Assembly (NCBI GenBank): GCA_963971425.1
Contig: OZ020520.1
Coordinates: 12,213,807 to 12,277,806, forward strand
DNA: 64,000 nt
Source: Bryoerythrophyllum caledonicum
Lineage: Eukaryota > Streptophyta > Bryopsida > Pottiales > Pottiaceae
Reading direction: 5' to 3'
The notes below the pieces were generated by a model. That model had not been told where the DNA came from and ran no database searches. It worked only from the letters and a program-made list of their open reading frames with translations. The position numbers and the translations under genes are program-made. How positions within the stretch are numbered: position 1 is the stretch's first letter; each line of letters opens with the position of its first letter. Below, in pieces: positions 4,183-52,423 of this stretch.

Positions 4183-4203
4183 CAGGGTTGTCATACTGGA
4201 CGG
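4183..4203 (+). repeat. Terminal inverted repeat, outer hAT, kinase end
   Basis: Starts CAGGGTTGTCATA and continues into GGACGG. It matches the transposase end in all but two of the first 21 positions. Confidence 0.9.
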
Positions 4204-4263
4204 ACGTCCGGTACGCCCGTCCGTCCGAATCGCCCGTCCGTTAGAGCTCTCGCCCGTCCGGGT

Positions 4264-4346
4264 AAGTCAACTAAGGGTTGACTTATCCGCTAGGAAAAAA
4301 CAGGCCACGTGGCAGCCATGTTGGCACCACATAGCTGCCACGTAGG
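4264..4346. promoter_or_regulatory. Subterminal hairpins with a G-box, kinase end of outer hAT
   Basis: Two inverted repeats follow the terminus. AAGTCAAC pairs with GTTGACTT (4264-4284), and CCACGTGGCAG pairs with CTGCCACGT (4305-4346). The second contains CACGTGGC, a plant G-box/ABRE core. The same two hairpins are conserved in the inner copy (21769-21853), which argues for a role in transposase recognition or transcription. Confidence 0.5.
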
Positions 4347-4394
4347 AGAGGGTCATGTTTGAGTAGGATTGGGGACTAATGGCAAGAGGGAGGT

Positions 4395-4509
4395 GGGGCG
4401 GAGACGTCCCCGCCCCATACGGGCAGGGCCGAGACGTCTTCGCCCCTGTCCAGGTTGGGCGGGGACGTCTTTGCCCTCACACGGGCAAAAGCGGAAACGT
4501 CCCCGCCCC
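4395..4509. repeat. GACGTC palindrome array A
   Basis: About four palindromic units with half-site GGGGCGGRGAC mirrored around the centre of GACGTC, between the terminus and the 3' end of the kinase-like gene. Confidence 0.85.
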
Positions 4510-4922
4510 TTCATGAGTTAGTTAATAGTGTTTAACTATTGACACTATGTTGGTAAACAAAAATTTATGTTTACTGTAATATACACTAAATGTGAACCCA
4601 TACACCAATTGCAAATGAGGCACTTAATGTAGTGACATAACCGGACACTAAATGCCATTTACTACACTATGTATCATTTTTTGTAGAAATAATAAATTTA
4701 TTTCTTTCACTTGTGCACATTTAGTGTATCAATAGTGTATCAATAATTATTTGTGCTTGAACAAATGCAAATCTCAGATTTAGAATTTAAGATTTGGACG
4801 TATCCAATATTGATTAAAATATAACGTATGGCAATTGCCAAGTACACATATTCTTCTACGAAGATGCCGTATTGCCTATTTAACCACCACATGCGAAACT
4901 AATGCAGCTAATTAACAAAAAA
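4510..4922. other. Non-coding AT-rich 3' flank of kinase-like gene (outer)
   Basis: No gene. Short motifs of the TGATACACTA kind recur, and the block is conserved in inverse order at 21160-21572 of the inner copy. Confidence 0.6.
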
Positions 4923-6502
4923 CTATTGTCGGTAACAACATAGAGGCATAGTCCAGTTGTGGGGGGGTTTCATTAATGTGTCTAAAACATCTGGTACAGA
5001 AGACCGTTCTTCGAGCAGTTGTTTCTGCAACGCTGTAAGTTTTAGCTTCAGGTTTACATATTGCTCCGTGTTTTTGCTGGTGAAATACGAAGTGTCCCAA
5101 TCTTCTTTCAAAAAAAATTCACAAATCCAACCCACCGCAAATGCATCTGCTGCCTTAGAGTAGATGTGTGACCGTTGCATGACTTCAAGCGAGTTGGTGG
5201 AGTCCCGCGGCCCAAAATTAAAGAGCAGTTCTGGTGCCACAAACTGTCGCCGCTCTCTCTCTTATTGAAGCTCCTCCTTGAATTGATAACCATACCTTCA
5301 TGGCTCATTTTCCACAACCCGACTAGAAAGCCCCCAATCGCAAATTCCGATGTACACCGTATCCGGTTTCCACTCATCAAAGTGGAGCAAAACATTCGAT
5401 GGAGAGATGTCATTGTGTATATAATTTGCGTCGTGGCATTTTCCCACAATGACAAGCAATGATAGCGCGAGGTTCACTCGATTTTGGCGGTAAGTTTTTT
5501 CCACCGAAGCTCTTGGATTGACAACCCGGTATTCGGATGCATCTCAATCTGTTCAAATGGAAATGCTTCGTCCACTTTCGAGTCAAACTTGGACCAAAAA
5601 GAAGCCAGAGATCCCCCATTCCACCAGAGCGTGTACCCTTCCATAGTTTTTGAGTGGATGTACGCAAGTCTAATGATCCCTAGATGCACTACCGGACACC
5701 CTCCAGCCTCGTTGATGATGTTTTGGCGCTTCTCCCTCTCGTTGGTGTTGGTCAGAGTCATTCCAGCAAAGTAAATCCAACTTGGAATGTTTTCCAATTT
5801 AGTTATCATCACCTTCCGTACAGCCCCATAGCCACCCACCGCGCTCAGCCCTGGCATTGGAATCACTTTAGCGCAACTTTCAAGCCACTTGAAAGTTCCA
5901 CCAACGCAGTGAGCCAAAATTTGTTCCTCAATAGTCGCTTTCCAAGGAGCTAGTTTCTTCTTACGGGAAGAAGAGTACTGTTGAACGAAGCCCTGGATCA
6001 TCCTCATCTTCGCCACTAGTGCGCGCTCCTCGAAGTTCCAGGTGCTCTCATCCTCCTTATTCCCCGTGACGTAACACCAGTTCGCAACGATATTGGTGGT
6101 CAGTGCGGTCACTTGGGTGTCCAACCACTCCGAATGCAACCAATAAACTGAGAAATTATTAAATTTCTTAGATTTATCAAGGTTTGACATTAATTCGTGT
6201 CGCATGTCAACCGTCAACTTGTGGTATCCCTCTTTGTTGTGGTTCAGATAGATCGCCATCAATACCTGTCTCGTTCGGCGGTTGTAAAACTCAACGGCAA
6301 TCCCTTTACATTCAACCATGTATTCGTGCGGAGGCATGTCCGGATTTGGTGACTTCTTCCGCCTCTTTCCGCTCGATGACGACGGATTCAATGATCCCGA
6401 AGTCAACTCCGTGTTGGTGGACGGAAGAACCGTCTCATCAACATCATCCAAGTCCATAAATATTGGGCGCTTCTCCATTGACCTACTTCCTTCTCCCGCC
6501 AT
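4923..6502 (-). pseudogene. Kinase-like gene, broken copy of the outer hAT
   Basis: This aligns end to end with the intact 526-residue gene at 19579-21159. It begins with the same MAGEGSRSMEKRP and keeps the catalytic-loop motif HNDISPSN and the CDWGLSS motif. Compared with the intact copy it has a frameshift near 5510, ending the first frame at 5474, and two in-frame stops around 5265-5300, both readable as C-to-T or single-base changes. It therefore encodes only a 342-residue N-terminal piece. It lies head to head with the RING gene starting at 6774. The palindrome array that separates the two genes in the inner copy is reduced here to a remnant around 6650-6690. Confidence 0.85.
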
Positions 6503-6773
6503 ATGTGATTGTCAACTCCCTACCGTGGTCGAAATTCCAAGTTGATGGTTTTAAAAAAAACCGCAAAGAGTCTGGGTACAATAAATGAGCCAAGCCCGAT
6601 CACCCACCAAACTCACTTTCAGACCGCAAAGCGAACTGACACGTGAGGCCTAGAGACAAGACGTCCTCGCCCCATACTCCTTCTTCATCCACCTCTTAAT
6701 TGAGTTGGTTGTAGGCGTCGTGTGAGGACTTCATCCATTCGCATCACATACAATATTCAGATTTTCCCCACCC
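6503..6773. promoter_or_regulatory. Divergent intergenic region, outer hAT (array lost)
   Basis: This is the shared upstream region of the kinase-like and RING genes. Compared with 19021-19578 it lacks most of the palindrome array and the TATA boxes, with a partial GACGTC motif left near 6660. The deletion would remove the putative promoter of both genes. Confidence 0.6.
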
Positions 6774-7910
6774 ATGGCCACGCCAGTAAAAATGAATAAA
6801 GAAGAACGAGACAAGAGTCGACTACGATTGGGAAACAAACAGCAGAAGAGGTTGCATGTGCTTCGGAATCCTGTTAAATTGGCTTTTAAAGGTTGGAAAG
6901 AAGTTCTGGAGCCATGGAGTTTTGAGGATTGCGCAAACTTCATCGAGTGGTGCCATATCGACAAGGCTTTCCCGGAGGAGCGACACAATTATCACCGATG
7001 CTTTCACAAGGCAAATTTATGGAAGTGCACCGACGATGCGTTCAAAAATCGATGCATTGAAGTATACGAGGTCTTGTACGACATCCCTTGTATCAAACGC
7101 AATGAAGTAAATCTCTTCCTTGTGCGAGGTGTCCATGCGGAGGTAAAGTTGGGCAAGAGGGTGGATTGGTCCACCTTGAAAGCCATGGGAGATAGCATAA
7201 GAGTTCCTTTTCCGGCGAATGGATTGATTCCAATGGGGACAGGGAGGTATCCGGAAGGCGGATTGGGCAAATTGATGGCGAAGACTGAACCGGTCGACAC
7301 GTACGAGACCGATCCCTCAAACACGGATACAGACTCTGACGGATCCCACGTTCCAATCACAAGGAGCCAAAGGACACAAGCGCGCACCAAACGAAGGAGG
7401 GCGGAACAAACGGTTAACGTAGTCGTTAACAATACCGTTAATGAAGTTGGGGCTCAGGTACAATCCCCCGCGGTTGTTGATCGAACGTTAGAAGCCACTA
7501 CTGGTGCTATTTTTGCCAACACTATCCAAACCTTGCTGAACCAATTGAAAGGGAAGACAACAGAACTATTGTCATTGCGCAATGAGGTTCTCATGTTGAG
7601 AGTTGAAGTCAATGATAAAAATATTGTTATTGACCAGCAACGACGTGATATAGAGGAGCTCCGACTTGCCCTTCAAACTAGTACAATGACCACAGAAGAT
7701 CGAAATCCACGACGGGAGGAGGAAGGGCTTGTACACGTGTCAACCCAAGACGATTCATTGTCGTTTGATGAGGCCCCTACCAACGCAGACAAAGCTATGG
7801 TCAACAAAGAAGAGGGTGCGGCGAGTGATGGCGGCAAAGAGCTCGCTAAAGCGCTTGAGGAGAATTCAAGACTACAAAGTCGCTTGGATGTGTTGGTAGT
7901 ACATTACTAT
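6774..7910 (+). pseudogene. RING-H2 gene, 5' part, interrupted by the inner hAT
   Basis: The frame opens at ATG (MATPVKMNKEERDKSR) and runs without a stop to codon 379 (VVHYYQ), where the inner hAT begins at 7911. Everything to the right in this frame is transposon DNA. It encodes the conserved N-terminal domain (residues about 1-160, including GVHAEVKLGKRVDWSTLKA), a basic stretch with RTKRRR, and a coiled coil (about 250-305). The remainder resumes after the duplication at 21935. Confidence 0.9.
7903..7910. repeat. Left target-site duplication of inner hAT
   Basis: ATTACTAT here is repeated exactly at 21935-21942 on the other side of the inner element. Confidence 0.93.
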
Positions 7911-7931
7911 CAGGGTTGTCATAACGGACGG
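7911..7931 (+). repeat. Terminal inverted repeat, inner hAT, transposase end
   Basis: CAGGGTTGTCATA followed by ACGGACGG. It equals the inverse of the outer element's right end at 32404-32424. Confidence 0.9.
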
Positions 7932-8092
7932 GTTGAGGTGATCGGACGGGACAACCGGACGGGCGGTCCGGACGGCACGGACGGACGGTTCAGATGGATT
8001 GCCCGAAGTGCGCCCAGTAATTTTTGGCAAGTAAGAAATTTTTACTGTGATCGCCACGTCACATACGGACGTATCATGCCACTGTGGCACTA

Positions 8093-8268
8093 GGGCGGGG
8101 ACGTCTCCATGAGGGGCGGGGACGTCACAATGAGGGGCGGAGACGTCACAATGAAGGGCGGAGACGTCTCCGCCCCAGGGGCGGGGACGTCTACGCCCAA
8201 GGGGCAGGGACGTCTACGCCCCTGGGGCGGGGACGTCTACGCCCCTCATGTAGGCGTCCACGCCCCTG
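8093..8268. repeat. GACGTC palindrome array B
   Basis: About six units between the transposase end of the inner hAT and the 3' end of its transposase gene. Several units are reduced to GGGGCGGGGACGTC half-forms. Confidence 0.85.
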
Positions 8269-11200
8269 CATCATTGAGTGGATAGGCCTTAATGTCTGGA
8301 AGCAAAATCTGTTTATTACATTAAAAAGTAAACGACCCGATTTGCGCACTCCTTCGGTGGACGGGCCACCCATAACCGCATCTCGAAGGACGATATCATC
8401 ATCATCTGGTGCCTCATCGCAATCTGGACGGTTGTCATCATCAGCTCCTTCACCGCTCTCATTTGAGAATTCTCCATTGCTATTATCCGTAGTCCAAAAG
8501 CCCTCTATTTCAGAGTTGTCATTGCGAAGCTCGACGACTATTTCACCATCGCAACGCGAGCGTCTGAATCTCTTTTGTCGATGTACGTGAGGATCATCGC
8601 CGTCGGAATTTATGGTTGGGCCGCTGGTTGGACGAATTTCTCGATTCGGAACAACAAACGCCGGAGTTGTTGAAGAGTGTCCTGGAACATACGTGTCCAA
8701 AAATGGTTGTACAACCACGTTCGGATCTCATGCCCCTATTCCAAGGAGGGCACGTCTACGATGCCTTGAGGAGGATGCTTTGCCGTTGTTTCTTCCTTCA
8801 CGGCCTCTAGCCGCTCCACGGCCTCTAGACCCTCCACGAGCATTAGTCCTTGCACTCGGTCGTATATATTGACCCATTGGATGAAGAGGCGTCCTTGTAG
8901 TGGCCAAAGGGGGTCTACCAATTCTGGTAGTAGTAGCGGAAGTGTTTAGACCCATCCCTTCAACGCCTACACTTCGTTGAAAAGGTCCATACATGGCATT
9001 TGCCGTTCTAGGAGAAGAGAAATCCCGGGAAGGCGGCGTTGGTACATTCTGGTCATTGATAACCGTAGGCAACACCACAACCGGAGATGGTTGTGGCTCA
9101 AGGTCCTCTGTGAATGCAAAAGCATCATCGGGGTCTACATATTCCGGGTCAAAACGCTTTCGTTGATTAACAATCCTTTCATTTCTTCGAGTCGTCCCTA
9201 CAATTGTTGTGTTTACAACATTTGCGTTAGAGTCTCCTTGAACGACTCCAGTGCTATGAAATGATGCACCCATTCCAATAGGGCTCTCTTGGCCATACCG
9301 GTTTTCAACCGATGCTTGGTTGTTTCGAGTCGCAATATTTACTGCGTTCTCTCCCGCTCCGTTGTTGTCGCCATCTCCATTTCCACCACCATAGTCTGAT
9401 GGGGAATTGTCCTCGTCGCAAACATTCCCGACATTGCCTCCCCCCCGTTTCAGGCTCTTCAAGGTTAGTCACATTTGGGATGTCGCTCTCTGAGGAAGTA
9501 GACAAAGGTTGCACTTCATGAATGCCCTCATTTTCATGAAAATGAGGCGAAGGACTACGACGAGGACTTTGATTCCAAGGTCCCCAACGACCTTGAGCCA
9601 ATTCTTCTTCCACATCGTCATCATCTCCGTAACAGTTTCTCGTTTCCTCAAGATGATCGGCGCCTTCCGCCCAAAGATTAGGGTGTCCACGGTACTCCAG
9701 CGGAGTACAGGCAGCTGCCATATTGTGCTCCTCCTCTTCCTCGGCTATCAACACATCAAATTCACGATTAGGTTCATCCACCGGGACCGGCCCTAGGGCA
9801 TCTAGATCAAAATCCTCCGAGTGAATATTCGCATCGTACCATCGAACAGGATCGGCCCCCGGTCTTTGTTGAAAGCATCGGCTATTGGTATAAATATACA
9901 CCAATGACGCAGCCTTTTCTGCCGCTAATCAATTTCGGCTCTTGTTGTGGACAAACAAGTACATACTCCAATTTCGTTCGCAAGAGCTAGCTGAACACGT
10001 AAGGGCGAGAATACGAACAGCTATTATAGACAATGCCTTGTCTGCGATCCTGGCCCACCATTGGTGGAGTTGAAGCTTTGTCTGGCGGATGTCAGATGCC
10101 TCGGTAGGGCCATATGGTTCTGTGCCCTCCTCGTACTGTGTTAACTCATATTGGACGTCCTCATATGAGACTTCCAATACCCCCATCATTTTGCGAACAA
10201 CCTGATTCAATGCTCTTTGTGCGATTCCGTCAGCCCTAAGCGCCACATTATCCTTGAGGTACTGATTCAAAAGAGCCCCGGCGTAGTGAACATCGATAAA
10301 AACCATTTGCCACCGGGCATCAAAAGATTGCTCAAGAGTGGATGCTATGTCAGCTCGTAGAGTAAAGGGTGACTCTCTCAAAGAATACACGTGTTCTCGC
10401 AAATTATGCATCACGAGCCACGCACGACCGATGGCTGGTTCGCGGCCATCAAACACACGCAATGCCTTCAAAACATCCCCAGTCATGTGCACGTAATTCT
10501 GACATCGTTGCCAAAAGGCCACATCTTCGATGGTGAGCACCACATTACGCGCTGCGGTTGCTGCTTGCTCTCCATTTTGTTTGTTCCGTAGGGTTGCAAA
10601 GTAGTTTACAACACGGGGGTGGTCTTTCAACTACTCCAACACTCCTTTGAGTCGCACCAATCGATCCAACATAAGGAAATTACAAGCAAAGCGGGTTTCA
10701 GTGGGCACTACAATATGCAGGTTTGGACTCAACTCACGAAGTGTTCCCATTGTCGAATGGTGGTTTCTAATATATTTGCACAATTTCTTTGCCCTCTCTA
10801 TTAAATCTTTAAATTCTTGGACCTTCGCCCAATCTTCCAACATGAGATCCAATGCATGTGCCATGCACCCCTGCTTGTGAATGTGCGGGTATGTGAAAAT
10901 AATATCATCCATCGCTCCAAGCATGTTGGGGGCATTGTCTGTACAAATCTGTGTCACATTCTTGGAACCCACCTTCTCAATGTAAACTTTCACTTGGTCC
11001 GCTATATACCGCATGGACTTCTTCTCACCACTGGTGTCTATGCTCCCCAAGATTACGTCACCAGTGATCATTAAATTCATGAGAGGCCTCCGATGGACAT
11101 CATCCCAACCATCCGTGCATATCGACACCCCATAATTCTTGATTGCAAAACCAACTTTGGCTTCAATCTCTTTCTCAATTTGCAACCTCTTAGGTTCAAT

Positions 11201-11845
11201 CAATCTAGTCCTCAACTGGTGATATGTAGGAGGAGTGTACTCAAACTTTGCCACAGATGTCGCCCTCACTGCATCGATGAACGCTTGATTTTGCGCCACA
11301 TTGAAAGGCACATTCGCTTGATAGAAAAAAGTTGCCCGCTTCTCATCAAGTTCCTTCCTCTTTGCAATGTTAAAAGCATCAAGCATCCGTTGTTGATGTA
11401 GTTGCCCAGATCTAGTGGAATTCGAGGCGGTAAGACCACCCGACACATGTTTGCGGTCGTTTCCTTCCGAGAAATTAGGCACTCCTTCCTGAGGCCCACT
11501 TGTTACCCCACCCGCCACATTATTTTGAGCGTCGGATTGGCTTGAAGTGTCAATAGTTGGTGCCCTCGATGGACCACCCGGGCCTGAATCTCCGCCATAC
11601 ATGTCCCCGCCCGTCATTCGTTGCGGAACAATGTTTCCACAATTGGCAAATCGACTTCGCACATAGGGAGGTAGGCTACGACAAATCGACCTCTCTGACT
11701 TAGCGCCGTATCCAAAGTGAGCGAACGCAGGCTCACGTTTGTAGCTAAAAGTGTAGTTACAGAAAACACAACTCACTTTGCCCCCGTTGTCACCAAAATT
11801 GTACCAAGGTTCCCATTCTTTTGTTTGCTTCCTTTGACTTCCCAT
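8191..11845 (-). pseudogene. hAT transposase, broken copy of the inner element
   Basis: The start is the ATG at 11845 (MGSQRKQTKEWEPWYNFG). It has a BED-type zinc finger (CVFCNYTFSYKR, about residues 20-60), a DUF659/RNase H-like core (ICTDGWDD, QICTDNAPN, CMAHALDLML) and a C-terminal hAT dimerisation region (CSASSCERNWS near 9960-9990). An acidic, low-complexity tail of about 400 residues follows, which most hAT transposases lack. In-frame stops at 10631, 9929 and 8728 correspond to CAG or CGA codons in the outer copy, so they are C-to-T changes. A G-run near 9441 also shifts the frame. No functional transposase can come from this copy. Confidence 0.88.
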
Positions 11846-12100
11846 TGCATTCACGGCTTATGCCAAATAATGTGCAAGTCCGGTCTAAGCCAAAATCCGG
11901 AGCTAGTTATAGTATAGAATCACGTGAAAATGTGAGGTCTGAAAGCGCTGGTCCAATGCTTGAACCAATTTTTACATCACCTCAGCCGCACACAAGTGCC
12001 ACCTGCCACCCAAGTAGACTCGCAAGGAGCTCAAATTGAATTGAGGTCCAAGGGATAGAGGCCAAGGTGACAAGCGTGAGGACAATCGGCCCTCCCCGAA

Positions 12101-12109
12101 CCTTTTATA
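12101..12109 (-). promoter_or_regulatory. TATA box, inner transposase gene
   Basis: TATAAAAGG on the minus strand, about 256 bp upstream of the ATG at 11845 and just inside array C. The same box and spacing occur in the outer copy at 28119. Confidence 0.65.
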
Positions 12110-12144
12110 CACGAGCCAAGAACGGGTGGGACCTGAAGTGCCAA

Positions 12145-12423
12145 GGGCGTCCTGCCTTGCCCTGGTGGGACATCTCCGCCCTGCCCTGTTGTGAGGAGAC
12201 GTCCCCGCCCCTGCCGGGTGAGGGCAGGGACGTCTCCGCCCCTCCCGGGTAACGGCGGGGACGTCTCCACCCTCCCCAGGTAAGGGCGGGGACGTCTCCG
12301 CCCCTGCCCGGGTAAAGGCAGGGACGTCCCCGCCCCTGCACGGGTAAGGGCGGGGACGTCTCTGCCCCACCAGGGCAGGGCGGAGATGTCCCCGGCCTTA
12401 CTTGGGCACGGGCTGGGACGTCT
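12145..12423. repeat. GACGTC palindrome array C
   Basis: The longest array, with about eight units separated by CCCGGGTAAG-like spacers, directly upstream of the inner transposase TATA box. Confidence 0.88.
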
Positions 12424-12660
12424 TTCCAACCCAGGAGAAGGAGGCCTTTGGGGCATTTTGGGTGCTTAGGCACTCCTCCTCTCCATGAGGACGGTGGAGG
12501 TTTTAATATAGGGTACCTTATTTTTGGTTCCGACAAGATTACGACGCACTTAAAATTAGATGCAGGTTATGTCTACGAAGGAAGGCTTTCAGGAAAGTAC
12601 TACTTTTGTCCTTTGACCGCATGCTCTCCAATAATGAACACCTTTATTAGCTCCCTAATA

Positions 12661-13250
12661 AACCAAGTAGTGGATAGCATGGGAGCTATGCAAGTCCCCA
12701 TCCATAACGGGTAGTGTAAGCCTCTAGTAGAATGTAATGTGCAAGTTCTCTAAATATATAATTTAAACACAATTGCCCCACAAAAGATTAGGAATGTACC
12801 ACATACCATGAAAGCAAAAAAATAAACCAAGTAGTGGATAGCATGGGAGCTATGCAAGTCCCCATCCATAACGGGTAGTGTAAGCCTCTAGTAGAATGTA
12901 ATGTGCAAGTTCTCTAAATATATAATTTAAACACAATTGCCCCACAAAAGATTAGGAATGTACCACATACCATGAAAGCAAAAAAATAAACCAAGTAGTG
13001 GATAGCATGGGAGCTATGCAAGTCCCCATCCATAACGGGTAGTGTAAGCCTCTAGTAGAATGTAATGTGCAAGTTCTCTAAATATATAATTTAAACACAA
13101 TTGCCCCACAAAAGATTAGGAATGTACCACATACCATGAAAGCAAAAAAATAAACCAAGTAGTGGATAGCATGGGAGCTATGCAAGTTCCCATCCATAAC
13201 GGGTAGTGTAAGCCTCTAGTAGAATGTAATGTGCAAGTTCTCTAAATAAA
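12661..13250. repeat. 164-bp tandem repeat, inner hAT (about 3.6 copies)
   Basis: The start of the unit (AACCAAGTAGTGGATAGC) recurs at 12661, 12825, 12989 and 13153, exactly 164 bp apart. Units are almost identical, so expansion was recent. It lies downstream of the short paralogue. The outer copy has one unit fewer (25243-25665). Confidence 0.95.
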
Positions 13251-13357
13251 TTGTACCATTACAAACAAAAAGGATATTTAAAACCATATAATGTTTAGAG
13301 CAAAAGTATTGTTCACAAAATTGATTTGCTACGTCCTAAACCTTTAAATACTCCTAC

Positions 13358-14013
13358 TCAATAGTAACGTTGGTGAAGGGCTCGTTTGGTCCTCCTCAGC
13401 CTACCACGTGCTTGTGCCTTTTCGCTCGCGACTTGGACGTGGGTTCCGTCGGAGTCATCATCTGAACTTGACGTGTTAGTATCATAGCTAGGTGTGTCGT
13501 CCATCACAGTCATGAACTTGCCCAATCCACCTTCCGGATACTTGCGCCATCCCATTGGAATTATTCCATTTTCAGGGCGAGGAATTTTTACCTTCCCCGG
13601 CATCGACTTCAAAGTGGACCAATCCACTATCTTGCCCAACTTCACCTCCGCATGAACACCCCGTGCAATGAAGAGATTTACTTCGTTGCGTTTGACAAAT
13701 GGGACGTCATACAACACCTAGTAAACTTCGATGCATCGGTTTTTAAACGCCTCGTCGATGCAATGTTTCAAGTTTGCCTTGTGGAAGCGCCGGTGATAGT
13801 TGTGTCGCGCCTCTGGGAAAGCCTTGTCGAAGTGGCACCACTCGATGTAATTCGCGCAATCATCAAAACTCCATGGCTCCACTACGTCCTCCCAACCTCG
13901 AAAGCCAACTTCTCGGGATTTCGAAGAACGTGCAACCGCTTCCGATGGGCGTTCCCCGCTCTTGCACGGGTCTTGTCACGCTCCTCCTTGGCCAATTGTC
14001 CGGATGAAGACAT
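13358..14013 (-). pseudogene. Short RING-less paralogue, broken copy (inner hAT)
   Basis: Homologous to the open 218-residue gene at 24471-25127. The frame starts at ATG 14013 with the same MSSSGQLAKEERDK. Relative to the outer copy it has a one-base deletion near 13910 and a CAA/CAG-to-TAG stop near 13720, so only the last 119 codons stay open (GVHAEVKLGKIVDWSTLKSM onward). Confidence 0.85.
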
Positions 14014-14161
14014 GGTGTGCACGTGTGAATGCAAAATTCTGGCGTGGATGGATGAATGAGACCTCGTACAACGCCCACATCCAGCTCAATGAAGAGATAG
14101 TGGATAGGAGTATGCGAGGTGGGGACAAATGAGGTCCCCCTCCATTAAAACAGTAATCCGG

Positions 14162-23090: not shown

Positions 23091-24278
23091 GTGTATTTTT
23101 TGTTTTTGCGGTGCCAAGAGATAATTTTTGTACAATGCTTCATCTTTTAGCGTTTAATGTATTTTCCCATTTTCGTATTACATTATGGATACTAAAAAAA
23201 ATATGAATAGTACTGTCTACATTCTACTTGATAATAGTGGTGTGAGTCCGTGTGATTATATATGGACTTAAGCCTCATAAGGATTTGTGCGTTTGTATTA
23301 AAAAAATGGTGTGGATCAAGTTTTAAACCTCCAAACATTTTTAATCCCTAAAGGACCAAGGCATTTTTGCACCAAAAACACTTCAAAACTGCGAGGCTAT
23401 GGTATAATGCCTAAGAATGGAGACAAAACCTTTTTATTTCTACATCTAACCGTAGGATCACAATAAATACTTCTTTGTTAATGTCCCCACAAAATTTCAT
23501 AAATTTTAACCACATGGATTGAAAGGCTTGCATAGCTCCCATGCTATTCACTACTTGGTATCAAATTTTTGCACTACATAAGGCCTAAATCCATTACTAA
23601 TGGTAGTTTAAGATGATGTTAGTTCCTTATACACCAATTGTTAGAGGTAGAAAAAGGGTGTACCTTATTCAAGTCAACTATGCTAGTAGTGGAAGCTAAA
23701 AAATGGGCAAGTAACATTTTAGTTTTTAGATACTTGATATGTTTTAGATTGATGTATATTTATGGTCAATATGAAGGTCTACACCACATATTGTTGTGGA
23801 AAAAATCAAAAGTATAAAAAGTTAAAATCTCTAAGTTTTATGTGGTAAGACGTTTTTGTTTTTGGTACCTTGCCCGTTATATTTTTGGCAATATGTGAAA
23901 ATCTTTGACTTGAGTTGAAGCGTTATTTTCCACTAAAGACAAGGATTTTTTTTTTAAATTTGGAAGGAAATCATTTTCTACACTCTTATGTTTGCTCCAA
24001 AACTAATAGGGAGCTAATAAAGGTGTTCCTTATTAGAGAGCATGCCGTCAAAGTACAAAAGTTGTACTTTCCATTTTGCCTTCCTCCCTAGAACTAGGGA
24101 AAGACATAATCTGCATGTTATTTTAAGTGCATTAGGATCTTGTCGGAACCCAAAATAAATCACCCCATATTCAATTGTGCACCCGCCTCATGGAGATGAG
24201 GAGTGCCTCGGCCAAACAAGAGTGGCCTCCTTGGAAAGTTTTGTGGGGATGAATCCCCCCCCCAATTTACAAGCAAAC
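23091..24278. other. Non-coding 3' flank of the RING gene (outer)
   Basis: Collinear with 15542-16734. No gene. The segment 24005-24240 recurs in diverged form after the short paralogue (25670-25880). Confidence 0.65.
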
Positions 24279-24320
24279 ATCCCCGCCCCTGTCCTAGTGG
24301 GGCGGAGACGTCTCCGCCCC
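24279..24320. repeat. GACGTC palindrome array H
   Basis: One complete unit and one partial unit, about 150 bp upstream of the outer short paralogue. No TATA box is evident between them. Confidence 0.8.
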
Positions 24321-24470
24321 CACCGGATTACTATTTTAATGGTGGGGGACCTCATTTGTCCCCGCCTCGCATACTCCTATCCACCATCTCTTCATTGAGC
24401 TAGATGTGGGCGTTGTGCGAGGTCTCATTCATCCATCCACGCCAGAATTTTGCATTCACACGTGCACACC

Positions 24471-25127
24471 ATGTCTTCATCCGGACAATTGGCCAAGGAG
24501 GAGCGAGACAAGACCCGTGCAAGAGCGGGGAACGCCCATCGGAAGCGGTTGCACGTTCTTCGTAATCCCGAGAAGTTGGTTTTTCGAGGTTGGCAGGACG
24601 TAGTGGAGCCATGGAGTTTTGATGATTGCGCGAACTACATCGAGTGGTGCCACATCGACAAGGCTTTCACAGAGGCGCGACACAACTATCACCGGCGCTT
24701 CCACAAGGCAAACTTGAAACATTGCATCGACGAGGCGTTTAAAAACCGATGCATCGAAGTTTACCAAGTGTTGTATAACGTCCCATTCGTCAAACACAGC
24801 AAAGAAAATCTCTTCATTGCGCGGGGTGTTCATGCGGAGGTGAAGTTGGGCAAGATAGTGGATTGGTCCACTTTGAAGTCGATGCCGGGGAAGGTAAAAA
24901 TTCCTCGCCCGGAAAATGGAATAATTCCAATGGGATGGCGCAAGTATCCGGAAGGTGGATTGGGCAAGTTCATGATTGTGATGGACGACACACCTAGCTA
25001 CGATACTAACACGTCAAGTTCAGATGATGACTCCGACGGAACCCACGTCCAAGTCGCGATCGAAGAGGCACAAGCACGTGGTAGGCTGAGGAGGACCGAA
25101 CGAGCCCTTCACCAACGTTACTATTGA
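24471..25127 (+). CDS. Short RING-less paralogue of the cargo RING protein (intact)
   Basis: An open frame of 218 residues from ATG 24471 (MSSSGQLAKEERDKTR). An upstream in-frame extension has no ATG. It matches the first ~210 residues of the 761-residue RING protein (HVLRNPEKLVFRGW, CANYIEWCHIDKAF, GVHAEVKLGKIVDWSTLKSM, YPEGGLGKF) but stops after an acidic DTNTSSSDDDSDG and a basic RGRLRRTERAL tail. It lacks the coiled coil and RING finger. It is probably a truncated duplicate whose product could bind the same partner without ubiquitin-ligase function. That role is inference. The inner copy of this gene is broken. Confidence 0.75.
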   Translation: MSSSGQLAKEERDKTRARAGNAHRKRLHVLRNPEKLVFRGWQDVVEPWSFDDCANYIEWCHIDKAFTEARHNYHRRFHKANLKHCIDEAFKNRCIEVYQVLYNVPFVKHSKENLFIARGVHAEVKLGKIVDWSTLKSMPGKVKIPRPENGIIPMGWRKYPEGGLGKFMIVMDDTPSYDTNTSSSDDDSDGTHVQVAIEEAQARGRLRRTERALHQRYY

Positions 25128-25242
25128 CTAGGAGTATTTAAAGGTTTAGGACGTAGCAAATCAATTTTGTGAACAATACTTTTGCTCTAAACATTATATG
25201 GTTTTAAATATCCTATTTATTTGTAATGGTACAATTTATTTA

Positions 25243-25665
25243 GAGAACTTGCACATTACATTCTACTAGAGGCTTATACTACCCGTTATGGATGGGGACT
25301 TGCATAGCTCCCATGCTATTCACTACTTGGTTTATTTTTTTGCTTTAATGGTATGTGGTACATTCCTAATCTTTTGTGGGGCAATTGTGTTTAAATTATT
25401 TATTTAGAGAACATGCACATTACATTCTACTAGAGGCTTATACTACCCGTTATGGATGGGGACTTGCATAGCTCCCATGCTATCCACTACTTGGTTTATT
25501 TTTTTGCTTTCATGGTATGTGGTACATTCCTAATCTTTTGTGGGGCAATTGTGTTTAAATTATTTATTTAGAGAACTTGCACATTACATTCTACTAGAGG
25601 CTTATACTACCCGTTATGGATGGGGACTTGCATAGCTCCCATGCTATTCACTACTTGATCTAAAA
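25243..25665. repeat. 164-bp tandem repeat, outer hAT (about 2.6 copies)
   Basis: GAGAAC(T/A)TGCACATTAC recurs at 25243, 25407 and 25571, 164 bp apart, in inverse orientation to 12661-13250 and in the same place relative to the short paralogue. Confidence 0.95.
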
Positions 25666-25894
25666 GGGAGCTAATAAAGGTGTTCATTATTGGAGAGAAT
25701 GCGGTCAAAGGACAAAAGTAGTACTTTCCCGAAAGCCTTCCTTCGTAGACATAATGTGCTTCTTATTTTAAGTGCGTCGCAATCTTGTCGGAACCAAAAA
25801 AAAAGTACTTTATATTAAAACCTTCACCCTCCTCATGGAGAGAAGGAGTGCCTAAGCACCCAAAATGCCCCAAAGGCCTCCTTCTCTTGGGTTG

Positions 25895-26001
25895 AGGAGA
25901 CGTCCTAGCCCCTGCCCAAGTAAGGGCGGGGACGTCTCTGCCTTGCCCTGGTGGGGCGGAGACGTCCCCGCCCTTACCCGGGCAAAGGCGGGGACGTCTC
26001 C
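25895..26001. repeat. GACGTC palindrome array I
   Basis: Three or more units, continuing as array J beyond the solo LTR. Together they are the counterpart of array C, upstream of the transposase gene. Confidence 0.85.
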
Positions 26002-27991
26002 TGTAGAGTGGTTTATCACCACTCTAATAAAACACCCAATTGTACCCACACCTCATAGGATTCGTTACGGGAATGATCATACGCCTAGTTTTAAGTAATT
26101 GGAGATTAATTGTGTCGTTAAAGCTATCTTTTTGGTTAATTCTTAAGGTTATCTATCTATTTTTAGGAAATTAGGGCTGTTAGCATCACTCTTAAGGGAT
26201 CCACAAACAAAGTCTAAACCCCAAGGATCTCTCGTGCCTTAAGACGGAACATTAGTCCTTTTAAGATTGTGCTTATGCCACTAATCCTTAATCACTTGCC
26301 ACACTGGGCTAATGGAAGTTTCCATTAAGTCTCATTGCATTGGTTCTTTAATTACAATCCTTAAGAATTCAAATTCTTACCTCATGCAAAAACGCTCCAC
26401 TTTTCACGTCCGTCCACTCAGTCCACGTGATCACGTTCTTAAGACAATGGTTAGTCTGAAAAATCCCATACACAAGTTAACTTAAGTCTTAAAGAGTTCA
26501 CCTCTTAAGTCTCCACTTAAGTTCACTTACCCACAATTATCCCTTAAAGACCACGGTGTTCCACACTTACTCGTACCACTTAGTCTTTAAGATGTCTGAA
26601 TTTTACTTAAGACTTCTCTCTCGGCCGGGTCCATGTTCTTAAGAACACAGTTTCTGTCCTTGAGTTCTTAAGCACTCACTTTCTCACTTAGGACTGATTC
26701 TTAAGAACCTGCACTGTCTAGACCAATTCGGTCCTACAGTGTTCTTAAGTTTCTGTATTTAAGACTTCCAGAACCGGGAATGCATCTCACTGAATGCAAA
26801 TGTTGTCCCGTATTCTCACTCATACGAACCTTTAAGTCCAAGCTCTTAAACTTAAGGGTCTCATGGTACTTAAGGTCTCACTCTTCATAAGCTTATGTAT
26901 CCAAACTTGGACTTAAGATTCTTAAGTTTCTATGTTTTCTTCTTAAGCCTTTCTTTGGGATTTGTTCCTTATTTTCTCTCTTATGATAGATTCTTAAATA
27001 CTCACAACTTTGTCTACCTTAGAGAATCCCTTCTATTAAGGTTAGACTTAATGCCAATTTTTTGTATGCATAATATGACACTCTTGCCATGCATCAAGGT
27101 ATGCCACTCTTGATGTTTATTGCATAAATTGCATTAACATGAATAAGAACTCCACTCTTATTCTTATGATACTCAAGTTATGCTCACTCACACTCGAGAT
27201 CTTATTAAGTACTTATGCATTACACATCTCATGCACTAAGTCACTTAATTTCACATTATCTCCATTAATCTTCACACTCATGATTAATGCTCCAACACAC
27301 ACACACAAGGTCACACCCATGACCTTAGTAGTTAGGGTATTTCCCTATCTTATTTCCATGAAGAATAAATATACAATGCATTCATGCATAAGAATTTTAT
27401 CCACAATTAATACCTAATGCATGCAATTGCATTTACAACACACAATGTCAAATTTATGCAATGAAGTTCACATATTATTGCAATTATACATATGACTCAA
27501 GTCACACACAAGACTCTACATATGCAAATTCAATAGTAATTATATATTCATATATAAAATTAAATATTCTTACAACATTAAGAGTCATCAACTAGCTCTT
27601 TCACCTAAAGCTAGGGCTCACTCCAATCTTCCTCCAAGGAATTTCTATGGTAATGGCCAAGAATGCTAAAAATTCAAGCTAGTCATTCTACTCAACACGC
27701 AAGAGGTACAACTCTTGGAAAGAGGTTTTCCCTAGTATTAACCATTAAGATTAATTCCACAAAATCTTCACATCCCTTCATATCCATTCATGAAAAGGTA
27801 CAACCTATCCAAAGGGTGCGAGTTCAACATTTTTCCCATTATTTCCTTATTCTTGGATATGAATAGGTACTTTCCAATTAATTAAGTACTTAGTGTAAAC
27901 TTAATCATTATTTTTTAATTTTCCATATATCTACAACCCTTTTTACACTTAATTTTTGGAAAAAATCTATTTTTGTAATTTTGGCTCTACA
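26002..27991 (+). mobile_element. Solo LTR (1,990 bp) inside the outer hAT
   Basis: Starts TGTAGAG and ends CTCTACA. The 5-bp duplication TCTCC lies at 25997-26001 and 27992-27996. An AGAGTGGT / ACCACTCT hairpin sits just inside the left end. No coding capacity is seen. The left half is crowded with CTTAAG and TTAAG motifs. The family is unknown, and the inner hAT has no LTR at this position, so it inserted after the two copies separated. Confidence 0.9.
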
Positions 27992-28004
27992 TCTCCCCAC
28001 AACA

Positions 28005-28084
28005 AGGCAGGGCGAAGACGTCCCCGCCCCTCCCTGGGTAAGGGCGGGGATGTCTCCGCCTCTGCACGGAGACGTCCCCGCCCT
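28005..28084. repeat. GACGTC palindrome array J
   Basis: Two units, ending about 35 bp upstream of the transposase TATA box. Confidence 0.85.
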
Positions 28085-28118
28085 TGGCACGTCAGGTCCC
28101 ACCCGTTCTTGGCTCGTG

Positions 28119-28127
28119 TATAAAAGG
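28119..28127 (+). promoter_or_regulatory. TATA box, outer transposase gene
   Basis: TATAAAAGG between array J and the ATG at 28383, conserved in position with 12101-12109. Confidence 0.65.
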
Positions 28128-28382
28128 TTCGGGGAGGGCCAATTGTCCTCACGCTTGTCACCTTGGCCTCTATCCCTTGGACCTCAATTTAGTTTGAGCT
28201 CCTTCCGAGTCTACTTGGGTGGCAGGCGGCACTGGTGTGCAGCTGAGGTGATGTAAAAATTGGTTCAAGCAGTGCACCAACGCTATCAGACCTCACATTT
28301 TCACCTCATTCTATACTATAACTAGCCCCGTATTTTGGCTTAGATAGGACTTGCACATTATTTGGCATAAGCCGTGAATGCA

Positions 28383-31300
28383 ATGGGAAGTCAAAGGAAG
28401 CAAACAAAAGAATGGGAACCTTGGTACAATTTTGGTGACAACGGGGGCAAAGTAAGATGTGTTTTCTGTAAGTATACTTTTAGCTACAAACGTGAGCAAG
28501 CGTTCGCTCATTTTGGATACGGCGCCAAGTCAGAGAGGTCGATTTGTCATAGCCTACCTCCCTATGTGCGAAGTCGATTTGCCAATTGTGGAAACATTGT
28601 TCCGCAACGAATGACGGGCGGGGACATGTATGGCGGAGATTCAGGCCCGGGTGGTCCATCGAGGGCACCAACTATTGACACTTCAAGCCAATCCGACGCT
28701 CAAAATAATGTGGCGGGTGGGGTAACAAGTGGGCTTCAGGAAGGAGTGCCTAATCTCTCTGAAGGAAACGACCGCGAACATGTGTCGGGTGGTCTTACCG
28801 CCTCGAATTCCACTAGATCTGGGCAACTACATCAACAACGGATGCTTGATGCTTGATGCTTTTAACATTGCAAAGAAGAAGGAACTTGATGAGAAGTGGG
28901 CGACTTTTTTCTATCAAGCAAATGTGCCTTTTAATGTGGCGCGAAATCAAGCGTTCATCGATGCAGTGAGGGCGACATCTGTGGCAAAGTTTGAGTACAC
29001 TCCTCCTACATATCACCAGTTGAGGACTAGATTGATTGAACCTAAGAGGTTGCAAATTGAGAAAGAGATTGAAGCCAAAGTTGGTTTTGCAATCAAGAAT
29101 TATGGGATGTCGATATGCACGGATGGTTGGGATGATGTCCATCCGAGGCCCCTCATGAATTTAATGATGTCGTGCCCCACTGGTGACGTATTCTTGGGGA
29201 GCATAGACACTAGTGGTGAGAAGAAGTCCATGCGGTACATAGCGGACCAAGTGAAAGTTTACATTGAGAAGGTGGGTTCCAAGAATGTGACACAGATTTG
29301 TACAGACAATGCTCCCAACATGCTTGGAGCGATGGATGATATTATTTTCACATACGCGCACATTCACAAGCAGGGGTGTATGGCACATGCATTGGATCTC
29401 ATGTTGGAAGATTGGGCGAAGGTCCAAGAATTTAAAGATTTAATAGAGAGGGCAAAGAAATTGTGTTAATACATTAGAAACCATCATTTGACAATGGGGA
29501 CACTTCGTGGGTTGAGTCCAAACCTGCGTATTGTAGTGCCCACTGAAACCCGCTTTGCTTGTAATTTCCTTATGTTGGATCGATTGGTGCAACTCAAAGG
29601 AGTGTTGGAGCAGTTGAAAGACCACCCCCGTGTTGTAAACTACTTTGCAACCCTACGGAACAAACAAAATGGAGAGCAAGCAGCAACCGCAGCGCGTAAT
29701 GTGGTGCTCACCATCGAAGATGTGGCCTTTTGGCAACGATGTCAAAATCACGTGCACATGACTGGGGATGTTTTGAAAGCATTGCGTGTGTTTGATGGCC
29801 GCGAACCAGCCATCGGTCGTGCGTGGCTCATGATGCATAATTTGCGAGAACACATGTACTCTTTGAGAGAGTCACCCTTTACTCTACGAGCTGACATAGC
29901 ATCCACTCTTGAGCAATCTTTTGATGCCCGGTGGCAAATGGTTTTTATCGATGTTCACTACGCCGGGGCTCTTTTCAATCCGTACCTCAAGGATAATGTG
30001 GCGCTTAGGGCTGACGGAATCGCACAAAGAGCATTGAATCAGGTTGTTCGCAAAATGATGGAGGTATTGGAAGTCTCATATGAGGACGTCCAATATGAGT
30101 TAACACAGTACGAGGAGGGCATAGGACCATATGGCCCTACCGAGGCATCTGACATCCGCCAGACAAATCTTCAACTCCACCAATGGTGGGCCAGGATCGC
30201 AGACAAGGCATTGTCTAAAATAGCTATTCGTATTCTAGCCTTTACGTGTTCAGCTAGCTCTTGCGAACAAAATTGGAGTATATACTCGTTTGTCCACAAC
30301 AAGAGCCGAAATCGATTAGCGGCAGAAAAGGTTGTGTCATTGGTGTATATTTATACCAATAGCCGATGCCTTCAACAAAGACCAGGGGCCGATCCTGTTC
30401 GATGGTACGATGCAAATATTCACTCGGAGGATTCCGACCCAGATGCCCTGGGGCTGGTCCCGGTGGATGAACCTAATCGTGAATTTGATGTGTTGATAGC
30501 CGAGGAAGAGGAAGAGCACAATATGGCAGCTGCCTGTACTCCGCTGGAGTATCGTGGACACCCTAATCTTTGGGCGGAAGGCGCCGATCATCTTGAGGAA
30601 ACGAGAAACTATTACGGAGATGATGACGATGTGGAAGAAGAATTGGCTCAAGGTCGTTGGGGACCTTGGAATCAAAGTCCTCATCGCAGTCCTTCGCCTC
30701 ATCTTCCTCAAAATGAGGGCATTCATGAAGTGCAACCTTTGTCTACTTCCTCAGAGAGCGACATCCCAAATGTGACTAACCTTGAAGAGCTTGAAACGGG
30801 GGGGGCAATGTCGAGAGTGTTTGCGACGAGGACAATTCCCCATCAGACTATGGTGGTGGAAATGGAGATGGCGACAACAACGGAGCGGGAGAGAACGCAG
30901 TAAATACTGCGACTCGAAACAACCAAGCATTGGTTGAAAGCCGGTATGGCCAGAAGAGCCCTATTGGAATGGGTGCATCATTTCATAGCACTGGAGTCGT
31001 TCAAGGAGACTCTAACGCAAATGTTGTAAACACAACAATTGTAGGGACGACTCGAAGAAATGAAAGGGTTGTTAATCAACGAAAGCGTTTTGACCCGGAA
31101 TATGTAGACCCCGATGATGCTTTTGCATTCACAGAGGACCTTGAGCCACAACCATCTCCGATTGTGGTGTTGCCTACGGTTATCAATGACCAGAATGTAC
31201 CAACGCCGCCTTCCCGGGATTTCTCTTCTCCTAGAACGGCAAATGCCATGTATGGACCTTTTCAACGAAGTGTAGGCGTTGAAGGGATGGGTCTAAACAC

Positions 31301-31859
31301 TTCCGCTACTACTACCAGAATTGGCAGACCCCCTTTGGCCACTACAAGGACGCCTCTTCATCCAATGGGTCAATATATACGACCGAGTGCAAGGACTAAT
31401 GCTCGTAGAGGGTCTAGAGGCCGTGGAGCGGCTAGAGGCCGTGAAGGAAGAAACAACGGCGAAGCATCCTCCTCAAGGCATCGTAGACGTGCCCTCCTTG
31501 GAATAGGGGCACGAGATCCGAACGTGGTTGTACAACCATTTTTGGACACGTATGTTCCAGGACGCTCTTCAACAACTCCGGCGTTTGTTGTTCTGAATCG
31601 AGAAATTCGTCCTACCAGCGGCCCAACCATAAATTCCGACGGCGATGATCCTCACGCACATCGACAAAAGAGATTCATACGCTCGCGTTGCGATGGTGAA
31701 ATAGTCGTAGAGCTTCGCAGTGACAACTCTAAAATAGAGGGCTTTTGGACTATGGATGGTAACAATGGAGAATTCTCAAATGAGAGCGGTGAAGGAGCTG
31801 ATGATGACAACCGTCCAGATTGCGATGAGGCACCAGATGATGATGATATCGTCCTTTGA
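28383..31859 (+). pseudogene. hAT transposase, broken copy of the outer element
   Basis: The first ATG in frame is 28383 (MGSQRKQTKEWEPWYNFG). Domains follow the inner copy: BED finger, DUF659 core (ICTDGWDD and ICTDNAPN around 29120-29320), CMAHALDLML near 29380, and the dimerisation motif CSASSCEQNWS near 30250-30285. A long acidic, proline- and glycine-rich tail follows. Relative to the inner copy it has a 7-bp duplication (GATGCTT) near 28850 that shifts the frame, a TAA at 29467-29469 where the inner copy reads CAA, and a different G-run length near 30799. The closing TGA at 31857 is CGA in the inner copy, so the ancestral end is uncertain. Confidence 0.88.
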
Positions 31860-32138
31860 GATGCGGTTATGGGTGGCCCGTCCACCGAAGGAGTGTGCAG
31901 ATCGAGCCGTTTGAATAATTACAGGACAAGAAAAGTAACTACATATATGTATGCGAAATCAAGAGAGTTGTGATAATTCATAGAAGAAGCTAGGAGAGAA
32001 AAAGGTTTCTTAGATAACTACAAGATATTACTTCGTTTGGAAGTATGAGATTAGGGAATTCTTGTTTTATCGTGAAACTTTTTAATGTAATAAACATATT
32101 TTGCTTCCAGACATTAAGGCCTCTCCGCTCAATGATGC
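31860..32138. other. Non-coding 3' end of the outer hAT
   Basis: About 160 bp here (roughly 31905-32075) have no counterpart in the inner copy, so this is either an insertion here or a deletion there. No gene. Confidence 0.5.
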
Positions 32139-32245
32139 AAGGGCGTGGACGCCTACATGAGGGGCGTAGACGTCCCCGCCCTAGGGGAGGCGTCTCCGCC
32201 CCTCATGGTGACGTCCTCGCCCCTCATTGAGATGTCCCCGCCCTA
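32139..32245. repeat. GACGTC palindrome array K
   Basis: About four degraded units close to the transposase end, the counterpart of array B but shorter. Confidence 0.8.
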
Positions 32246-32403
32246 GTGCCACGATGGCGTGACACGTCCGTATGTGACGTGGCGATCACAGTAAAAATTT
32301 CTTACTTGCAAAAAATTATTGGGCGCTCTTTGGGCAATCCGTCTGAACCTTTCGTTTGTGCCATCCGGACCGCCCGTCCGGTTGTCCCGTCCGATCACTC
32401 AAA

Positions 32404-32424
32404 CCCGTCCGTTATGACAACCCT
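32404..32424 (-). repeat. Terminal inverted repeat, outer hAT, transposase end
   Basis: Ends TATGACAACCCTG, directly followed by the target duplication CACCCGGC (32425-32432). Confidence 0.9.
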
Positions 32425-52420: not shown

Positions 52421-52423
52421 GAT

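What the first reader, a model, noticed from the sequence alone, without database searches (positions are those of the whole stretch)
4183..32424. A giant hAT transposon carrying kinase-like and RING-H2 cargo genes
Seen: matching CAGGGTTGTCATA ends, an 8-bp duplication (CACCCGAC/CACCCGGC), an unoccupied relative of the target at 42874-42881, and four gene types inside. Known: hAT elements are usually 2.5-5 kb with only a transposase. Inferred: a cargo-bearing hAT family of about 12-13 kb, present twice here with the same gene order, which argues that the cargo travels as part of the element. I know of no described hAT with this gene set.
Basis: partly seen in the sequence, partly recalled or inferred. 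Interest (0 to 1): 0.92.

Follow-up and report, generated by a model that had tools for sequence, protein, structure and literature searches.

The report
hAT transposon with conserved extra genes
A photosynthetic organism's genome carries many copies of a large jumping gene of the hAT kind; nearly all the full copies examined hold, besides the transposase, a protein kinase, a RING-finger protein and a short relative of it, which suggests that the jumping gene makes its own helper proteins.

Summary
Without later solo-LTR-like inserts they are about 12.2 and 12.8 kb. The source genome (437 Mb) holds the end motif 798 times, the reversed control 2. Of 20 convergent pairs among the first 100 listed ends, 17 have an 8-bp duplication with at most 2 mismatches. 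Of 13 such pairs read whole, 12 carry kinase, RING, RING-N and transposase in one order; the other is a 3.7 kb deletion derivative. Median omega is alike for kinase, RING and transposase (0.45, 0.49, 0.54). GACGTC palindrome arrays lie in the elements' non-coding parts and nowhere else in the window. So the extra genes belong to the element. I propose accessory proteins that manage its expression or silencing, by analogy with VANC of VANDAL elements; this is inferred. Ten paper searches listed no hAT with this gene set; ToxhAT (14 kb, fungi) has other cargo. New variant of a known kind.

The parts
4183..32425 (-). Outer hAT element (28,243 bp including the inner element and a solo-LTR-like insert; about 12.2 kb without them); strand given as that of its kinase gene, kinase-side end at 4183
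   Evidence: Ends and TSD
7911..21934 (+). Inner hAT element (14,024 bp; about 12.8 kb without its solo-LTR-like insert), opposite orientation, inserted in the RING gene of the outer copy; kinase-side end at 21934
   Evidence: Ends, exact TSD, 95.5% identity over 12,121 aligned columns
4175..4182 (.). Outer TSD, left (CACCCGAC)
32426..32433 (.). Outer TSD, right (CACCCGGC)
7903..7910 (.). Inner TSD, left (ATTACTAT)
21935..21942 (.). Inner TSD, right (ATTACTAT)
4183..4195 (+). Terminal inverted repeat, outer kinase-side end
32413..32425 (-). Terminal inverted repeat, outer transposase-side end
7911..7923 (+). Terminal inverted repeat, inner transposase-side end
21922..21934 (-). Terminal inverted repeat, inner kinase-side end
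19579..21159 (+). Inner kinase gene, 526 aa, open
   Evidence: ORF; Pfam; catalytic residues; model pLDDT 84
4925..6502 (-). Outer kinase gene, broken by one 1-bp deletion and two nonsense codons (3' limit of the gene, the low coordinate, approximate)
16735..19020 (-). Inner RING-H2 gene, 761 aa, open, but the third zinc ligand is Ser where the other 11 aligned sequences have Cys
6774..7910 (+). Outer RING gene, 5' part, cut by the inner element
21943..23090 (+). Outer RING gene, 3' part; the outer gene also has a 1-bp deletion and a nonsense codon
24471..25127 (+). Outer RING-N gene: 218-aa protein like the N-terminal domain of the RING protein (61% identity), no RING finger
13357..14013 (-). 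Inner RING-N gene, broken by a 1-bp deletion and a nonsense codon (coordinates by alignment to the outer copy)
8330..11845 (-). Inner hAT transposase gene (DUF659, Dimer_Tnp_hAT, long C-terminal tail), nonsense codons at 10631 and 9929; 3' limit approximate
28383..31859 (+). Outer hAT transposase gene, frameshifts and one nonsense codon
4391..4508 (.). GACGTC palindrome array, outer kinase-side subterminal
6653..6672 (.). Single GACGTC palindrome unit in the divergent kinase/RING interval, outer
8093..8245 (.). GACGTC palindrome array, inner transposase-side subterminal
12162..12423 (.). GACGTC palindrome array between RING-N and transposase, inner
14164..14226 (.). GACGTC palindrome units upstream of RING-N, inner (one more unit at 15498 after the insert)
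19187..19366 (.). GACGTC palindrome array in the divergent kinase/RING interval, inner
21574..21720 (.). GACGTC palindrome array, inner kinase-side subterminal
24300..24319 (.). Single GACGTC palindrome unit upstream of RING-N, outer
25892..26001 (.). GACGTC palindrome array between RING-N and transposase, outer (goes on at 28010-28083 after the insert)
32162..32243 (.). GACGTC palindrome units, outer transposase-side subterminal
26002..27991 (.). Later solo-LTR-like insert in the outer copy (TGTAGAG...CTCTACA, 5-bp TSD TCTCC)
   Evidence: read directly
14226..15488 (.). Later solo-LTR-like insert in the inner copy (TGTGAG...CTCACA, 5-bp TSD CCGGG)
   Evidence: read directly

Best explanation
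This is a multi-copy family of hAT cut-and-paste transposons, 10.5-14.0 kb in the full copies read, in a photosynthetic host (probably a streptophyte). A full element codes for four proteins in fixed order: a kinase read toward one end, and a RING-H2 protein, a RING-less copy of that protein's N-terminal domain, and a hAT transposase of roughly 1,100-1,200 aa (length judged from relatives) read toward the other. SHOWN: ends, 8-bp duplications, fixed gene order in 12 full copies besides the window's two, signs of purifying selection on kinase and RING genes similar to that on the transposase, and GACGTC palindrome arrays in the non-coding intervals. INFERRED: the transposase cuts and pastes the element by its ends and subterminal repeats; the arrays put the genes under one control (a host or element-encoded DNA-binding protein); the kinase and the RING ubiquitin-ligase-like protein are accessory proteins serving the element, most likely by countering host silencing or by controlling transposase level and activity; RING-N may act as a RING-less competitor of the RING protein.
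For: End motif 798 times against 2 for the reversed control. All 20 adjacent convergent end pairs up to 36 kb apart among the first 100 listed ends: TSD exact in 9, one mismatch in 6, two in 2, none in 3. Of 15 pairs read whole, 13 have a TSD with at most 2 mismatches; 12 of these 13 carry all four genes in one order, with twelve different TSDs. 34 of 59 scored RING matches have a divergent kinase match 411-568 bp upstream. Matches without a stop: RING 18 of 59, kinase 27 of 82, transposase 9 of 53. Median pairwise omega over 55 pairs of 11 copies: kinase 0.45, RING 0.49, transposase 0.54, RING-N 0.43. For the window pair, neutral simulation without CpG bias reached the observed omega in 3, 1 and 0 of 1000 runs for kinase, RING and transposase. 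Relatives in the protein database: 16 RING, 47 kinase, 23 transposase; key residues are largely kept in the subsets aligned: 11 of 16, 16 of 47 and 13 of 23. Array units: 42 of 42 in element non-coding DNA in the window; 225 of 226 in the 12 full copies, the last in a span merged wrongly by the script.
Against: No activity, expression or recent transposition is shown. In the window both transposase copies are broken, the inner RING lacks one zinc ligand, and most scored matches of each gene contain stops. With a tenfold CpG bias the neutral simulation reaches the observed kinase omega in 37 of 1000 runs and RING in 14; its mean omega for kinase, RING and transposase is itself only 0.66-0.85, and the 11-copy medians were not simulated. 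One shifted frame of the transposase gives 0.54, so that frame control is weak. RING-N is not significant (Fisher p 0.15; 124-202 of 1000 runs). That kinase and RING serve the element is inference. Linkage of the genes in the metagenomic relatives could not be tested. Only the first 100 of 798 ends were surveyed, and 60 of these had no partner within 36 kb.
Confidence: 0.85

Rival explanations
1. Passenger capture: the element once picked up host kinase and RING genes that ride along (Pack-type) and do nothing for transposition.
For: Plant class II elements often capture gene fragments (review passages); kinases and RING proteins are abundant in plants (recalled).
Against: Genes are nearly full length and in the same order in 12 of 12 full copies (coverage kinase 1.00, RING 0.84-1.00, RING-N 0.81-1.00, transposase 0.75-1.00 of the 850 aa used), show omega like the transposase, and their closest relatives are metagenomic proteins: the only one of 47 kinase matches named as a plant is a moss protein at 27% identity, and no RING match bears an organism name (most matches have no name).
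Confidence: 0.1
2. Host-benefit cargo: the kinase and RING genes give the host a trait (for example defence signalling), and the element spreads partly by that benefit, as Starships or ToxhAT may in fungi.
For: Signs of purifying selection; a 14 kb hAT carrying a host-relevant gene exists in fungi.
Against: Many copies of 90-96% identity in one genome, most of them with stops, fit selection for transposition better than for a host trait. But the scored lists hold only the best matches, so a diverged domesticated host copy would have been missed.
Confidence: 0.08
3. Composite of unrelated nested elements whose genes share the interval by chance.
For: The window does hold nested elements and two solo-LTR-like inserts.
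Against: Twelve full copies with different target duplications have the same four genes in the same order.
Confidence: 0.01

Closest known systems
hAT superfamily (Ac/Ds, hobo, Tam3 and plant hAT elements)
   Same: CAGGG-type inverted ends, 8-bp target duplications, transposase with DUF659 and C-terminal dimerisation domain and conserved D, D, E positions
   Different: 10.5-14.0 kb with four genes; several transposase relatives of about 1,000-1,200 aa with a long tail; that hAT elements of 2.5-5 kb with one gene are the rule is recalled
ToxhAT of wheat-pathogenic fungi (PMC6737239, passages seen)
   Same: About 14 kb, inverted ends, hAT-like transposase plus several other genes
   Different: Fungal; other genes include ToxA, patatin-like and MFS genes and a nested second transposase; 74-bp ends; no kinase/RING pair in the passages seen
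VANDAL elements with VANC anti-silencing proteins (PMC5735166, abstract and section 9 seen)
   Same: Several proteins per element; short motifs in tandem repeats in non-coding regions whose number changes between copies
   Different: MULE-type elements (recalled); the Pfam scan here shows no VANC domain; no proof here that any protein binds the arrays
Giant EnSpm/KDZ/Sola elements with accessory genes in algae (PMC12477816 and PMC6431247, passages)
   Same: Enlarged DNA transposons with accessory genes, frequent nested inserts, frequently pseudogenised transposases
   Different: Other transposase superfamilies; accessory genes mostly of unknown function, one DNA methyltransferase-like; the word kinase occurs in neither main text

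Membership tests
hAT superfamily | 8-bp target site duplication | tested here: met
   17 of 20 end pairs with at most 2 mismatches, 9 exact; both window copies
hAT superfamily | Target duplication of the form nTnnnnAn (recalled) | tested here: inconclusive
   T at position 2 in 10 of 15 and A at position 7 in 8 of 15 8-mers, which include both versions of three imperfect pairs
hAT superfamily | Short terminal inverted repeats of the CAGGG type | tested here: met
   13-bp perfect inverted ends in both window copies
hAT superfamily | Transposase with hAT dimerisation region and DUF659, D/D/E positions kept | tested here: met
   Pfam; D249, D307, E627 invariant in 14 aligned sequences; that these are the catalytic residues is recalled
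hAT superfamily | N-terminal BED zinc finger | tested here: inconclusive
   A CxxC...H...C arrangement is visible in the alignment but no Pfam BED match at E up to 1
hAT superfamily | Cut-and-paste mobility | not testable with these tools
   Only past insertions seen
Eukaryotic protein kinase | Kinase fold with Lys, alpha-C Glu, HxD, Asn and D(F/W)G residues | tested here: met
RING-H2 E3 ligase | C3H2C3 zinc ligands | tested here: met
   In alignment A1 (12 sequences) C500 C503 H523 C526 C537 C540 are invariant; C518 is Ser in the inner window copy only; H520 is replaced in P0005. The outer window copy keeps C518. Pfam 25.0 bits against cut-off 27.3 for the outer copy
RING-H2 E3 ligase | Ubiquitin ligase activity | not testable with these tools
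   -
VANDAL/VANC anti-silencing system | VANC protein domain (DUF1985) and MULE transposase | tested here: not met
   No DUF1985 match at E up to 1 in the nine proteins scanned; transposase is hAT
VANDAL/VANC anti-silencing system | Tandem-repeat motifs in non-coding regions of the element | tested here: met
   42 of 42 units in the window; 225 of 226 units in 12 full copies, the last in a span that the script merged wrongly
VANDAL/VANC anti-silencing system | Loss of DNA methylation caused by an element protein | not testable with these tools
   -
Pack-type element | Captured host gene fragments without an own transposase | tested here: not met
   Own transposase (often broken) in 12 of 12 full copies; other genes nearly full length
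ToxhAT | Carries ToxA between its 74-bp ends | not tested
   ToxA was not searched for; the ends here share 13 bp

The most novel reading that the evidence does not exclude
The element carries a self-encoded regulatory kit: a kinase and a RING ubiquitin-ligase-like protein, tuned by a RING-less competitor, act on proteins bound to the element's own GACGTC arrays (host silencers, a bZIP-type factor or the transposase) to lift silencing or license transposition. This would be a post-translational counterpart of VANC anti-silencing, in the hAT superfamily.
Probability: 0.3. Interest if true: 0.88.

Novelty: new variant of a known kind. Interest (0 to 1): 0.73.

Why it matters
hAT elements are the textbook minimal cut-and-paste transposons (recalled). 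A family that keeps a kinase and a RING gene under selection much like that on its transposase, over many copies and with relatives in environmental sequence, points to a transposon that steers host signalling or protein turnover for its own spread. It would make the question of how large DNA transposons escape silencing in plants directly testable, because the arrays and the proteins are defined and matches without stops exist for each of kinase, RING and transposase in the genome.

Tried and rejected
One giant 28 kb element: rejected, since an inner pair of ends with its own exact 8-bp duplication cuts the outer RING gene.

Relatives in IMG/VR and GTDB contigs: kinase, RING and transposase alignments in viral contigs, kinase and transposase in genome contigs, no confirmed match. 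Rfam (gathering threshold) and tRNA scans of the window: nothing. Viral structure library: the kinase model matches many viral kinases (146 matches with E up to 0.001), none standing out. Foldseek on the PDB gave many kinases with low TM-scores and large rmsd; the VIA-align second look was used. RING model: mean pLDDT 57, not used for fold search.

Host identity: the genome has 58 matches to the light-harvesting family PF00504. Named relatives are Ceratodon (moss; kinase, 27% identity) and Chara (stonewort; transposase, 25% over 45% of the query) (lineages). A third named match, a kinase of 66% identity labelled Bacilli bacterium MAG, I take for a eukaryotic contaminant. The species is unknown. 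A 2018 survey of plant hAT elements found none in Physcomitrella (PMC6027215, passages).

A search for divergent sister families in the same genome with P0028 did not complete (first try, last try), nor was the PF01698 search.

Papers: in ten searches none of the titles and abstract starts listed describes a hAT with a kinase and a RING gene. The listings held 1-20 rows where up to 492 papers held the terms, and the library holds open-licence PMC papers only.


Full report
WHAT IS THERE. The motif CAGGGTTGTCATA lies exactly at four places in the window: 4183 (+), 7911 (+), 21922-21934 (-) and 32413-32425 (-). They form two nested pairs. The outer pair, 4183-32425, is flanked by CACCCGAC and CACCCGGC; the inner pair, 7911-21934, is flanked by ATTACTAT on both sides. 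The inner element lies in opposite orientation inside the RING gene of the outer one: the outer sequence with the inner element and one duplication left out runs in register with the inner copy's own RING gene. The two copies are 95.5% identical over 12,121 aligned columns. Each also holds a later solo-LTR-like insert with a 5-bp duplication, read directly: 26002-27991 in the outer copy and 14226-15488 in the inner copy. The unoccupied relative at 42874-42881 is a diverged repeat copy of the target (86% left, 81.5% right).

THE GENOME TEST. The genome that holds the window (437 Mb, 894 contigs) has 381 + 417 exact end motifs against 1 + 1 for the reversed motif. The tool lists the first 100, all on contig C1. 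I took all 20 adjacent convergent pairs up to 36 kb apart; the next distance is over 50 kb. The other 60 listed ends had no such partner and were not examined as pairs. TSDs: 9 exact, 6 with one mismatch, 2 with two, 3 none. Fifteen pairs were read whole; five longer ones (17-35 kb) were read at the ends only, two of which contain scored matches of two of the genes. Thirteen of the fifteen have a TSD with at most 2 mismatches. Twelve of these, 10.5-14.0 kb long, carry kinase, RING, RING-N and transposase in one order and orientation, mostly with broken frames. The thirteenth, 3,667 bp with an exact TSD, keeps both ends and non-coding parts but no gene beyond a RING-N remnant: a deletion derivative. 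The other two of the fifteen have no TSD and none of the genes. By gene, the scored matches are the best of larger, loosely chosen candidate sets: RING 59 of 3,716, kinase 82 of 2,329, transposase 53 of 3,179. Of the 59 RING matches 34 have a divergent kinase match 411-568 bp upstream, one more at 8,062 bp, and 24 have none in the truncated kinase list. Matches without a stop: RING 18 of 59, kinase 27 of 82, transposase 9 of 53 (the first two include the window's own inner copy, and some small contigs may be redundant). One transposase match without a stop lies in a frame given as 1,175 aa, like the 1,131-1,206 aa of some relatives.

SELECTION. Between the two window copies omega is 0.40 (kinase), 0.36 (RING), 0.36 (transposase) and 0.46 (RING-N). 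Shifted frames give 0.85-1.16 for kinase and RING; one shifted frame of the transposase gives 0.54 and one of RING-N 0.45, so the frame control is clean for only two of the four. Neutral simulation with the observed transition ratio has a mean omega of 0.84-1.10 without CpG bias and reached the observed value in 3, 1, 0 and 124 of 1000 runs for kinase, RING, transposase and RING-N; with a tenfold CpG bias in 37, 14, 3 and 198. Over 55 pairs of 11 copies the median omega is 0.45, 0.49, 0.54 and 0.43; these were not simulated. So kinase and RING appear to be held by selection about as strongly as the transposase. For RING-N the evidence is weaker: 5 of 14 copies keep the whole 218-aa frame.

ARRAYS. 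A palindromic unit, core GGGCGGGGACGTCTCCGCCC, mostly spaced 23-32 bp, occurs 42 times in the window with up to 5 mismatches: 42 in non-coding parts of the elements, 0 in their genes and 0 in the other 35.8 kb. All 5 non-coding intervals of both copies have it, with unit numbers that differ between copies (1 against 6 in the kinase/RING interval); base-shuffled non-coding sequence gives 0.04 on average, at most 1 (50 shuffles). In the 12 full copies on C1: 225 units outside the matched gene spans, 1 in a span that the script merged wrongly, 0 in the 100-bp flanks; 11 of 12 have units in all five intervals, the twelfth being the wrongly merged one. The transposase tail was not masked there. The unit holds GACGTC, the core of plant bZIP C-boxes (recalled). 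VANC targets in VANDAL elements likewise form tandem repeats in non-coding regions that change number between copies (PMC5735166, abstract and section 9 seen).

RELATIVES ELSEWHERE. The protein database gave 16 RING, 47 kinase and 23 transposase relatives, mostly without a name, with top identities of 66%, 67% and 67%. Those named with an organism: a Ceratodon kinase (27%), a Chara DUF659 protein (25%) and a kinase labelled Bacilli bacterium, which I take for a contaminant. Whether the genes are linked there is unknown, because that tool gives no context. The host is photosynthetic (58 PF00504 matches); that it is a streptophyte is inferred from these relatives.

HOW IT PROBABLY WORKS. Shown: a hAT family with four intrinsic genes. 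Inferred: the transposase binds the ends and subterminal repeats and moves the element; the arrays couple the genes to one regulator; kinase and RING protein act on silencing factors, on the regulator or on the transposase. Passenger capture fits less well because the genes are nearly full length, co-linear and constrained.

KNOWN OR NEW. It meets the hAT features tested with a clear answer; the BED finger and the finer target preference are inconclusive. The nearest known case by size is ToxhAT (passages); by logic, VANDAL/VANC. Giant EnSpm, KDZ and Sola elements with accessory genes are known from algae (passages). None of the titles and abstract starts listed in ten searches describes a hAT with a kinase and a RING gene. 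I rate it a new variant of a known kind.

Noticed in passing
window 50381-59412: Minus-strand non-LTR retrotransposon: endonuclease PF14529 at 57089-58564 and reverse transcriptase PF00078 at 55296-56999; the frames at 50381-54634 look by eye like repeated pieces of its 3' part.
   Followed up: partly
window 12657-13248 and 25234-25657: A 164-bp tandem repeat downstream of RING-N in both copies, 3.6 and 2.6 copies.
   Followed up: no
window about 9305-9468 and 30795-30903: Both transposase copies change frame near the start of the C-terminal tail, by different amounts, where a relative (P0064) has one open frame; slippage, sequencing error or a small intron are possible.
   Followed up: partly
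G000:C1:35536290-35546362 (L053, L054): A 9.9 kb pair of ends without TSD and without any of the four genes but with 43 array units, the most of the 15 pairs read whole.
   Followed up: partly
G000:C1:6840653-6847122 (L013): A 6.3 kb stretch with two kinase-side ends facing each other, no TSD and no genes; only the outer few hundred bases resemble the element.
   Followed up: partly
G000:C1:30557495 and C1:30697570: Two elements about 140 kb apart share the target duplication GTTTCCGG (one version of an imperfect pair in the first): a repeated target or a local duplication.
   Followed up: no
window 1-934 and 61249-63566: Open frames that look by eye like retroelement gag or zinc-knuckle proteins.
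   Followed up: no
window 2754-2953: A 200-base run of N (assembly gap) between similar sequences in opposite orientation (2567-2733 and 2997-3161).
   Followed up: no
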